NCBI RefSeq assembly: GCF_004683905.1
Contig: NZ_CP038438.1
Coordinates: forward strand, 2,232,001-2,296,000
Direction: 5' to 3'
DNA length: 64,000 nt
DNA from: Pseudomonas fluorescens
GTDB taxonomy: Bacteria; Pseudomonadota; Gammaproteobacteria; Pseudomonadales; Pseudomonadaceae
Under the pieces are notes generated by a model, which saw nothing but the letters and a program-made list of their open reading frames with translations, had not been told where the DNA came from and did not search any database. This document shows, piece after piece, positions 57,152 through 61,663 of the stretch. Every line of letters begins with the position of its first letter. The first letter of the stretch is position 1. Position numbers and translations under genes: made by a program.

Positions 57152-57238
57152 ATGGACGACTATCAAGAAGAACTGCTCGAATACCAGGCGTATGAACTGG
57201 ATCAGCCAGAGCCGGCCGAAGACGCCACCGAGTTGTAA
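57152..57238 (+). CDS. 28-aa acidic micro-protein
   Basis: Short frame MDDYQEELLEYQAYELDQPE... with eleven Asp/Glu residues and an excellent SD (aggggga) seven bases before ATG 57152. It lies 4 bp from the convergent AraC gene. Such short acidic proteins are often unannotated; function unknown. Confidence 0.5.
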   Translation: MDDYQEELLEYQAYELDQPEPAEDATEL

Positions 57239-57242
57239 GGTG

Positions 57243-58283
57243 TCAGGCGGTTTTGCGGTGACTGCGGCGAAACTCGCCGGGGGTCTGGCCGCTCCAGCGC
57301 TTGAAGGCGCGTTGAAACGCCTCGGCTGAAGCAAAGCCCAGCAGGTAGGCGATCTCGCCGAACGCCAGTTCGGTGTCGCGGATGTAGGTCATCGCCAGAT
57401 CACGGCGGGTGTCATTGAGGATCGCGCGAAACTGCGTGCCTTCCTCGGCCAGTTTGCGCCGCAAGGTCCAGGTCGGCAGCTTCAGGCGCGCCGCCACTTC
57501 TTCCAGGTCGGGTTCCCGGCCACCATTGAGCAACGGCCCCAGCAGTTGAGTGATGCGTTCACGCAGGCTGCGGGTGCGGGTCAATTGCTCCAGTTCCCGT
57601 TCACACAATTGCAGCAGATGCCGCCAGGTACTCGGACAGTGCTCGGGATTACGCTGTGCGAGGCTGTTCAGGTTCAGGCGCAATTGATTGCGCTCAGCGC
57701 CGAACTGGATCGGGCAGTCGCCCAGCGCGTTGTAGGCGTCGCGGTAGTCCGGCGCGTCAAATTCGATCTCGATGCGCTCGGCGCGCAGTGGCTCGCGACC
57801 GACGCTGGACAGTTGATGCAACCAGCCGGCGATAATCGAATCCACTACAAAACGGTTATAGGCGTTGTACGGGCTGATCGAATAGAAGCGCAGCCACGCG
57901 CCATGAGCGTCTTCGTGAAAACTCGACTGCCCGCGATAGTTGGAGCCGTACAGCGGCTCGAAGCGGATCAGACAACGGGCGGCCTCGCGCACGGTCGGCG
58001 CCTGCGCGGCAGTGACCCCGGCGAGTCCGGCCTGACTCAAGCGGCTGAGCTGACCCATGCGCAAGCCCAGTGCCGGATCGCCGGTCAACTGAATCGCGCT
58101 GTGCCCCAGACGCATGTAGCGCGGAATCGACAACCGCGCGCCGGCCTCGGCCAGTCGCGCAGCATCCAGCCCATATTGTTCGAGCAGCGGTTGCGGATCG
58201 GCACCTTGGCTGCGCACGGCATCAGCGAGGCTGTGCACGAAACCTACCGACAGATCCCCCAGACGCATCGGCAGCGGCTTCAT
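57243..58283 (-). CDS. AraC-family regulator with Arabinose_bd-type sensor domain
   Basis: 346-aa regulator. The N-terminal sensor domain (about 20-205) is the type called Arabinose-binding HTH_18-associated (YSISPYNAYNRFVVDSIIAGW), as in OruR and ArgR-like proteins. The C-terminal AraC DNA-binding domain (about 240-340) includes EEVAARLKLPTWTLRRKLAEEGTQF and FGEIAYLLGFASAEAFQRAFKRWSGQTPGEFR. It lies 3 bp downstream of the nitrilase-like gene on the same strand, so the two form an operon. Ligand unknown. Confidence 0.87.
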   Translation of the reverse strand: MKPLPMRLGDLSVGFVHSLADAVRSQGADPQPLLEQYGLDAARLAEAGARLSIPRYMRLGHSAIQLTGDPALGLRMGQLSRLSQAGLAGVTAAQAPTVREAARCLIRFEPLYGSNYRGQSSFHEDAHGAWLRFYSISPYNAYNRFVVDSIIAGWLHQLSSVGREPLRAERIEIEFDAPDYRDAYNALGDCPIQFGAERNQLRLNLNSLAQRNPEHCPSTWRHLLQLCERELEQLTRTRSLRERITQLLGPLLNGGREPDLEEVAARLKLPTWTLRRKLAEEGTQFRAILNDTRRDLAMTYIRDTELAFGEIAYLLGFASAEAFQRAFKRWSGQTPGEFRRSHRKTA

Positions 58284-58286
58284 GGC

Positions 58287-59417
58287 TTACAACCAGATGT
58301 TCAGCAGACGCGCGCCACGGGCTTCGCCATCGGCGAATTGCTGGCCGTTGCTGCTGAGGAAGCTTTGCCCCGAACCGGGCTTGTCCCAGAACTGGCCGCG
58401 CAGGAACACGCTCATGCCGGCGATCGCACGGCTGCTCGGTGGCTGTGCGGTCAGTGTCAGGCGATGCCAGGCCTGACCTTCACTGATTTCTCCGGGCTTG
58501 AGGCTGACCGACCCCGGTGTACTCGAACCCTTATAGCCGGCCCACGGCTGATTCCAGGCGTCGTGGCCGACGACGAAGGCCGGCACCGCCACCAGTTGCG
58601 CGCCTTGCTCGTCGAGTCGGCGATAGTTGTCGGGGTACCAGCTGTCGCTGCCGATCAGCACACCCAGACGCCCGGCCGGGGTCTCGATCACGTTGATTGC
58701 ATGCTCGTCTTCGCTATTGATCACGTCGCGCTGTTCGAAGATCGGGTGCATCTGCCGCTGGGGCTGGCCCAACGGCACACCATCACGGCCGAACACCACG
58801 CTGCTGTTGAACAGCGCGCCGCTGCCGGGCTTGAGCTGGCCGTCGCGGATGCTCGGTTCGGGCAGGACGATGGAACCGGCCACCAGTGTGACGTGGAATT
58901 CCTTGGCCAGACCACCGAATAACGTCTGGTAATCCTTGGCCATGGCTTTGGACTTCATGCGCAGGTGCGCGTCGTCGAGGCGATTTTCGCCCTTGGCAGT
59001 GAGCCAGGCGCGGGCGAACAGCAACGGATTGCTCGCCGCCAGCCAGTTCATCGCTTCGACGAGGGTCGGCGCCTGGTAGAGCTCGTCTTTCTCGCCGCTG
59101 ATCATCAGCCAGGTGCCGACATGCTCGGGCAGTACCACCACGGTTTTTTCGTTGAGCAGCCCCTGATCCTGTGCCTGCTGCAGATAGGCCGCGAGTTTGC
59201 GGTGCAGGCGCTCGGGGCTTTGGTAGTCGGTGGGAAACAGTTCCGGCTGGATGCCCAGCAGATTGCCACGGTCGGCGGGCGTGCCCTGATCGACCGCCAG
59301 TTTGATGCGCAGGTCCGACAGGTAATGCCCCGCCGGCCGGTCCGCCGCCCACATGGCGTAGGTGGTCAGGGCGGCAACGATGGCCATGGAGAAAAACAGA
59401 TACAGAAGTTTGCGCAT
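58287..59417 (-). CDS. membrane-anchored nitrilase-superfamily protein lacking catalytic Lys and Cys
   Basis: 376-aa protein with an N-terminal hydrophobic anchor (about 3-24) and an alpha-beta-beta-alpha carbon-nitrogen hydrolase fold. Glu98 (VVLPEHVG) is kept. The catalytic Lys position reads QRQMHP (Gln222) instead of R-K-x-H. The nucleophile motif that should read ICxD is VLIGSDSWYP (Gly256-Ser257). Two of three triad residues are thus missing, so it is probably a pseudo-enzyme. ATG 59417 fits the anchor; no strong SD is seen. The gene is directly followed by the AraC regulator. Confidence 0.7.
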   Translation of the reverse strand: MRKLLYLFFSMAIVAALTTYAMWAADRPAGHYLSDLRIKLAVDQGTPADRGNLLGIQPELFPTDYQSPERLHRKLAAYLQQAQDQGLLNEKTVVVLPEHVGTWLMISGEKDELYQAPTLVEAMNWLAASNPLLFARAWLTAKGENRLDDAHLRMKSKAMAKDYQTLFGGLAKEFHVTLVAGSIVLPEPSIRDGQLKPGSGALFNSSVVFGRDGVPLGQPQRQMHPIFEQRDVINSEDEHAINVIETPAGRLGVLIGSDSWYPDNYRRLDEQGAQLVAVPAFVVGHDAWNQPWAGYKGSSTPGSVSLKPGEISEGQAWHRLTLTAQPPSSRAIAGMSVFLRGQFWDKPGSGQSFLSSNGQQFADGEARGARLLNIWL

Positions 59418-59602
59418 GAAAACCAACAACAGCCGGGTACAGGGTGTGGCGACTAGGGTAGGGCGCATACCTGCGCTTGCCAAGGGGCGCTGCGCATTTG
59501 GATCAATAAGTTGTCAGTTTCGGTCATTGAGTGACAGCAGTGCGACTCTTAGTCTGTCGAACATGACTGACGGGGGACGCAGAGCTCCCGCAATTTCCGT
59601 GA

Positions 59603-61663
<2,061 letters not shown>

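What the first reader, a model, noticed from the sequence alone, without database searches (positions are those of the whole stretch)
58287..59417. Membrane-anchored pseudo-nitrilase coupled to an AraC regulator
Seen: nitrilase fold with Glu kept, but Lys replaced by Gln (QRQMH) and the Cys motif reading GSD. It has an N-terminal anchor and lies 3 bp from an AraC gene. Inference: a periplasm-facing binding or sensing protein rather than an amidase, perhaps supplying the signal for the regulator.
Basis: partly seen in the sequence, partly recalled or inferred. Interest (0 to 1): 0.5.

Follow-up and report, generated by a model that had tools for sequence, protein, structure and literature searches.

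The report
Catalytically dead membrane nitrilase in Pseudomonas
In many Pseudomonas bacteria a membrane-anchored protein of the nitrilase enzyme family has lost its catalytic residues, several times independently, yet evolution still preserves it, so it probably does a non-enzymatic job such as binding something.

Summary
The window protein has a nitrilase fold and an N-terminal membrane helix; it keeps the catalytic Glu (E98), has Gln for Lys (Q222) and Gly for Cys (G256), and contains no cysteine. Orthologs at the same locus keep a full Glu-Lys-Glu-Cys site in 42 of 187 rows, so the loss is derived. The tree needs at least five changes at the Cys, and no row keeps Cys without Lys. The dead form is under purifying selection (median dN/dS 0.10).

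It is not required to supply the AraC regulator's signal: nine genomes lack it but keep araC beside fadH. It does lie next to araC in all 163 loci measured, so a facultative link stays open. A conserved direct repeat (21-bp period) in the fadH/nit gap looks like an AraC-type operator, but it follows fadH: where the two lie apart it was found before fadH in 27 of 30 loci and before nit in 0 of 34.

Most likely it is a non-catalytic, periplasm-facing binding protein, made together with a regulator of fadH, whose functional core is the N-terminal half. Ligand and partner are unknown.

The parts
58287..59417 (-). pseudo-nitrilase CDS, 376 aa (P0001)
59343..59408 (-). predicted N-terminal membrane helix, residues 4-25
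   Evidence: hydropathy; helix 2-25 in the model
59124..59126 (-). Glu98 codon, retained catalytic Glu in PEHVGTWL
   Evidence: E in 42 of 42 EKC, 10 of 10 full-length EKG, 117 of 117 full-length EQG and 17 of 18 shorter rows
58953..59069 (-). 39-residue insert, residues 117-155, filled in fewer than half of 19 ordinary nitrilases; predicted helices
58752..58754 (-). Gln222 codon in place of catalytic Lys
58731..58733 (-). Gln229 codon where EKC orthologs have the second Glu
58650..58652 (-). Gly256 codon (GGC) in place of catalytic Cys (TGC in 23 of 23 EKC rows)
57243..58283 (-). AraC-family regulator, 346 aa (P0002), 3 bp downstream
   Evidence: Arabinose_bd 1e-42, HTH_18 3.3e-16
59624..61663 (+). 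divergent fadH, 2,4-dienoyl-CoA reductase, 679 aa (P0003)
   Evidence: 1ps9, E 2.9e-276
59500..59533 (.). conserved direct repeat, 21-bp period; proposed AraC-type operator of fadH
   Evidence: 126 of 140 intergenic regions, Markov shuffles mean 0.02; travels with fadH; one site in the genome at up to 3 mismatches, reversed control also one
59455..59483 (-). proposed nit-araC promoter TTGGCA-N17-TACCCT
   Evidence: 96 of 140 regions, none in 50 shuffle rounds
59527..59555 (+). proposed fadH promoter, -35 TTGAGT in the second half-site, N17, -10 TAGTCT
   Evidence: 130 of 140 regions; downstream-shuffled mean 0.68

Best explanation
The gene encodes a membrane-anchored nitrilase-fold pseudoenzyme. 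Its ancestor was an intact Glu-Lys-Cys protein at the same chromosomal place. The nucleophile went first (Cys to Gly), then Lys (mostly to Gln) and the second Glu, while the N-terminal half (anchor, PEH(I/V)GTWL, family-specific helical insert) stayed under selection. Shown by sequence: residue loss, its order, repeated loss, constraint, strict pairing with araC, an operator-like repeat that belongs to fadH. Inferred: it cannot act as a Cys-dependent amidase; it faces the periplasm; it works by binding an amide, acyl or carboxylate ligand in the old pocket, or a partner through the N-terminal half; the AraC protein activates fadH through the repeat. The regulator does not need the pseudo-nitrilase; a modulating role in species that keep it is possible.
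For: Residues (187 rows): 42 EKC with E98, K222, E229, C256 in 42 of 42; 117 full-length EQG with Q222 and G256 in 117 of 117, E229 in 38; K without C 15 rows, C without K 0. Their stray Cys lie at 6-18, 273 or 370, none at 256-257. Repeated loss: 5 changes, and an AU test rejects one clade of non-Cys rows, p 6.8e-11. Selection: median dN/dS 0.101, maximum 0.22, 230 pairs of full-length EQG. N-half dN below C-half dN in 30 of 30 pairs of shortened or EKG forms. araC adjacent in 163 of 163 loci measured. Gene absent with araC and fadH kept. Fold.
Against: No ligand, partner, localisation or phenotype is known. dN/dS values are pairwise Nei-Gojobori on non-independent pairs; relative to AraC the dead and intact forms evolve alike (dN ratio 1.67 and 1.72). 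E98, D258 and mostly H99 remain, so other chemistry is not excluded. Two shorter EKG rows (L037, L060) keep Lys and second Glu and have a Cys one residue on, at 257: possibly a shifted nucleophile, not a loss. Erosion and absence in several lineages show dispensability. The repeat is absent upstream of nit where fadH lies elsewhere (0 of 34), so shared control of fadH and nit is not shown; nor is binding of this AraC protein.
Confidence: 0.6

Rival explanations
1. One reading: a periplasmic binding protein that modulates the adjacent AraC regulator, for example by capturing or delivering its ligand.
For: Strict pairing with araC (163 of 163 loci measured), stricter than with fadH, which lay within 500 bp in 130 loci besides the window; short gaps; conservation without catalysis.
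Against: araC persists without it in nine genomes. The AraC protein has its own Arabinose_bd domain. Only a few residues precede the single membrane helix, so no cytoplasmic signalling part is visible.
Confidence: 0.18
2. Slow decay: the enzyme lost its substrate and the gene is a fading relic, kept only as leader of araC.
For: A series from intact through dead and shortened to absent; one split copy (G080, L091); dN/dS up to 1.01 among eroded pairs.
Against: dN/dS 0.10 and invariant replacement residues in the window type; N-half of shortened proteins still constrained, e.g. L083/L084 dN 0.041, dS 0.437; present in 141 of 149 genus genomes, one of them split.
Confidence: 0.12
3. Still an enzyme with changed chemistry, using E98, H99 or D258, or Ser257 as nucleophile.
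For: E98 and D258 in 117 of 117, H99 in 111 of 117 and S257 in 105 of 117 full-length EQG rows.
Against: Position 257 is not Ser in 12 of 117; E98, H99 and D258 are shared with EKC rows, where Cys is the expected nucleophile; Lys is gone and the second Glu drifts.
Confidence: 0.1

Closest known systems
Nitrilase superfamily / carbon-nitrogen hydrolases (PF00795)
   Same: fold, catalytic Glu, Asp after the Cys position
   Different: Lys, Cys and second Glu replaced; N-terminal anchor; 39-residue insert after the Glu motif
EKC orthologs at the same locus (P. nitroreducens, P. citronellolis, P. delhiensis, P. alcaligenes MRY13-0052, P. fluvialis and others)
   Same: araC and fadH in the same held stretch, anchor, insert, PEH(I/V)GTWL
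   Different: intact Glu-Lys-Glu-Cys site; no description found in the searches made
Apolipoprotein N-acyltransferase (Lnt)
   Same: a nitrilase-type domain outside the membrane (start of abstracts, and recalled)
   Different: one predicted helix here, a multi-helix membrane domain in Lnt (recalled); lnt model only 11.9 bits
Cys-to-Ala nitrilase mutants with bound ligand (6ypa, 5ny7, 4izs; titles)
   Same: nitrilase fold without nucleophile that still holds an amide
   Different: laboratory mutants; here the loss is natural and the Lys is gone as well

Membership tests
Nitrilase superfamily (fold) | CN_hydrolase profile match and fold | tested here: met
Nitrilase superfamily (enzyme) | catalytic Glu | tested here: met
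   E98
Nitrilase superfamily (enzyme) | catalytic Lys | tested here: not met
   Q222
Nitrilase superfamily (enzyme) | catalytic Cys | tested here: not met
   G256, no Cys in the protein
Nitrilase superfamily (enzyme) | second active-site Glu (role recalled) | tested here: not met
   Q229 in the window; E in 42 of 42 EKC rows
Apolipoprotein N-acyltransferase | match to the lnt model above its cut-off | tested here: not met
   11.9 bits against 132.9
Apolipoprotein N-acyltransferase | multi-helix membrane domain (recalled) | tested here: not met
   single hydrophobic segment
Pseudoenzyme | enzyme-family homolog without catalytic residues, retained under purifying selection | tested here: met
Pseudoenzyme | no residual catalysis; a non-catalytic function | not testable with these tools
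   needs biochemistry
AraC/XylS regulators (P0002) | Arabinose_bd plus AraC-type HTH | tested here: met
AraC/XylS regulators (P0002) | binds the direct repeat upstream of fadH | not testable with these tools
   repeat known by conservation only

The most novel reading that the evidence does not exclude
The membrane-anchored N-terminal half already had a second, non-enzymatic role (ligand or partner binding) in the intact enzyme. That role allowed at least five separate conversions to a pseudoenzyme through the same Cys-to-Gly change, and tolerated erosion of the catalytic half. The family would be a natural replicate experiment in how an enzyme turns into a binding protein, paired with a regulator of unsaturated fatty acid breakdown (fadH).
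Probability: 0.35. Interest if true: 0.66.

Novelty: new variant of a known kind. Interest (0 to 1): 0.5.

Why it matters
Pseudoenzymes are well known among kinases and proteases (recalled). No nitrilase-fold pseudoenzyme showed up in four searches of an open-access library (0 papers; 119 papers, 15 listed; 1 listed, not opened; 3 listed), all seen as listings. Here intact, partly dead, dead, shortened and absent states coexist at one locus in one family, so the steps of losing catalysis can be ordered and tested. It warns against annotating these genes as amidases, and gives a mapped candidate operator of fadH.

Tried and rejected
Alternative alignment with intact Cys and Lys: rejected, no Cys in the protein. 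Ser257 as nucleophile: not invariant. A single odd genome or sequencing error: rejected, 117 full-length rows share Q222 and G256. One single loss of Cys: rejected by the AU test, which formally asks for a group named before the tree was seen. Shared operator for fadH and nit-araC, my first reading: given up; I then lowered the best explanation from 0.66 to 0.60 and raised the modulator rival from 0.10 to 0.18. A wide regulon: the operator pattern has one genome match with up to 3 mismatches, but the reversed control also has one, so weaker sites are not excluded. Members outside Pseudomonadaceae: of 244 genomes of the order only G373 outside the family matched below 1e-60; of 369 of the class, 2 at 1e-25, both in the family. 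G373 shows no AraC or FadH match in 4 kb; nine ORFs of its 14-kb stretch include M19 peptidase, Mut7-C and amine oxidase genes; its fadH homolog lies about 115 kb away. Viral structure library: one match at E 0.001 or better, a phage CN hydrolase. Literature: the PA3093/PA3094 search gave one paper, holding PA3094 only (PMC13086498, seen in passages). Searches on fadH1 and the gene trio were seen as listings; none of those papers was opened. The AraC tree gave 10 changes of intact/lost/absent and was not analysed further.

Rows dropped: L001 and L038 (same places as the window and L217), seven repeated loci (L119, L122, L126, L127, L129, L133, L134) and the split copy L091. Of 80 named loci, 18 were added to the 165-row set (17 EKC and P. 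jinjuensis); 58 EQG and 4 EKC (L218, L227, L228, L234) were not. The 187-row set adds 22 of the 25 sister-genus genomes, the other three being in already. L092 and L079 were left out of the 185-row tree. The sets hold same-species pairs (L231 and L319 are identical). In one search the AraC start nearest to the nit stop was chosen, so gap lengths lean towards short.

Full report
What is there. ORF 58287-59417 (-) gives 376 residues with a CN_hydrolase match (3.1e-11). Weak matches to solved nitrilases (best E 6.7e-5) align the Lys region with QRQMH and the Cys region with IGSDSWYP. AlphaFold2 models of the window protein (pLDDT 89.9) and of an intact ortholog, L032 (90.1), are confident. The window model matches nitrilase-superfamily structures with Z up to 25.4, the intact one by Foldseek (best E 7.9e-13). 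Residues 2-25 form one helix. In 173 of 187 rows the N-terminal stretch reaches hydropathy 1.6, and 185 of 187 have K or R in the first five residues. Periplasmic orientation follows from the positive-inside rule and is inferred.

The active site. Against orthologs and 19 ordinary nitrilases, Glu is kept, Lys is Gln and Cys is Gly. In 187 rows: 42 are EKC, all with E98, K222, E229, C256 and A257, and 40 have that Cys alone; 10 full-length EKG rows keep K222 and E229 in 10 of 10 but have Gly for Cys; 117 full-length EQG rows, window included, have Q222 and G256 in all and E229 in 38, and 83 have no Cys; 18 rows are shorter. Cys elsewhere in EQG rows lies at 6-18 (32), 273 (2) or 370 (1). Lys without Cys occurs in 15 rows, Cys without Lys in 0 of 187, so Cys goes first. 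Codons are TGC in 23 of 23 EKC rows and mostly GGC in EKG and EQG, one base apart. Exceptions: four shortened rows have Glu at the aligned position, and L037 and L060 have Gly256 followed by Cys257 with Lys and second Glu kept, so their nucleophile may be shifted rather than lost.

How often it was lost. With catalytic columns left out, a careful tree of 51 rows needs 5 changes at the Cys (bootstrap range 5-6), and holding the non-Cys rows together is rejected (p-AU 6.8e-11). Losses-only counts on quick trees of 165 and 185 rows give 4 and 5 for Cys and 9 for Lys; allowing regain, Lys needs 3. EKG rows L106, L109, L186 and L187 nest in the EQG clade, so Lys was lost repeatedly or regained. That a strained nucleophile turn tolerates Gly best is my guess for the parallel change.

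Distribution. In the window's genus group 141 of 149 genomes hold an ortholog (one split) and 8 show only distant nitrilases. In a sister genus 25 of 25 do: 22 EKC, 2 EKG, 1 EQG (L032-L034). Of 80 named loci, the best of 561 in a capped search, 21 are EKC, 1 EKG (P. jinjuensis) and 58 EQG; AraC matched in 79 and FadH in 77 of the 80 stretches.

Selection. For pairs with AraC dS 0.1-0.6: full-length EQG 0.101 (230 pairs, maximum 0.22; AraC 0.070), EKC 0.299 (67 pairs, maximum 0.66; AraC 0.191), full-length EKG 0.151 (7 pairs), eroded 0.324 (12 pairs, maximum 1.01). The nit/AraC dN ratio is 1.67 for EQG, 1.72 for EKC and 2.79 for eroded rows, so relative to AraC dead and intact forms are held alike and eroded ones less. 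A wider filter gave 0.227 for EQG and 0.403 for EKC. In 30 of 30 pairs of shortened or EKG forms N-half dN is below C-half dN. E98, G101, T102, L104 and E109 stay in at least 17 of 18 shorter rows. Residues 117-155 are an insert relative to ordinary nitrilases.

The locus. fadH is a 2,4-dienoyl-CoA reductase (1ps9, E 2.9e-276). AraC was found beside nit in 163 loci, with gaps from -10 to +7 bp in 162 and one not determined (the nearest start was chosen). Nine genomes (G001, G014, G075, G109, G123, G138, G147, G148 of the 149, and G375) lack nit but have araC next to fadH, 248-379 bp between reference points against a median of 1400 in 134 loci with nit; in 29 loci with nit no fadH start lay in the stretch held.

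The operator. The fadH/nit gap holds a direct repeat with 21-bp period at 59500-59533. The pattern, derived from these regions, fits 126 of 140 gaps under 500 bp, including 9 of 9 without nit, against a mean of 0.02 in shuffles; 11 more have one mismatch and 3 two. A TTGGCA-N16-18-TACCCT promoter towards nit-araC occurs in 96 of 140, in 5 of 9 without nit, and in none of 50 shuffle rounds. A -10 element at the right distance from the second half-site occurs in 130 of 140, against 0.68 when only the downstream part is shuffled. Where fadH is not within 500 bp of nit, the repeat (at most one mismatch) is upstream of nit in 0 of 34 loci and upstream of fadH in 27 of 30 examined, the other 3 having two mismatches (33 of 34 genomes have fadH, loci were returned for 30). 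The repeat therefore belongs to fadH. That the AraC protein beside nit binds it is inferred from its AraC-like form and frequent neighbourhood; the nit-araC operon needs no copy of it.

Reading. The protein is a non-catalytic nitrilase-fold protein kept by selection. The regulator persists without it, so it is not an obligate signal source; strict pairing with araC leaves a facultative link open. Cys-to-Ala nitrilases can hold amides (titles of 6ypa, 5ny7 and 4izs), so a binding role for the old pocket is reasonable. Acyl or fatty-acid-derived ligands, from the fadH link, are conjecture. PA3094 of P. aeruginosa, by recalled gene order the AraC counterpart, binds DNA in EMSA and positively regulates lecA (passages of PMC13086498); that orthology was not checked.

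Limits. No function is demonstrated. Literature searches cover one open-access library.

Noticed in passing
window 57152-57238 (+): 28-residue acidic ORF MDDYQEELLEYQAYELDQPEPAEDATEL converging on the araC gene (in frame); a loose pattern for such peptides matched 244 of 326 loci held. Perhaps a conserved small protein.
   Followed up: partly
L091 (G080) and L117 (G076): In G080 the nit, araC and fadH matches are all split between frames, and in L117 fadH is split: frameshifts or assembly errors.
   Followed up: no
L302 (G678): A genome grouped in the EKC-rich sister genus carries an EQG form: transfer or a misplaced genome.
   Followed up: no
L106, L109, L186, L187: Lys present with Gly for Cys inside the EQG clade: possible reversion of Gln to Lys in an already dead protein.
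   Followed up: no
L037 and L060: Shorter orthologs with Lys, second Glu and a Cys one residue after the usual place (257), plus a second Cys at 289: a possible shifted active site.
   Followed up: no
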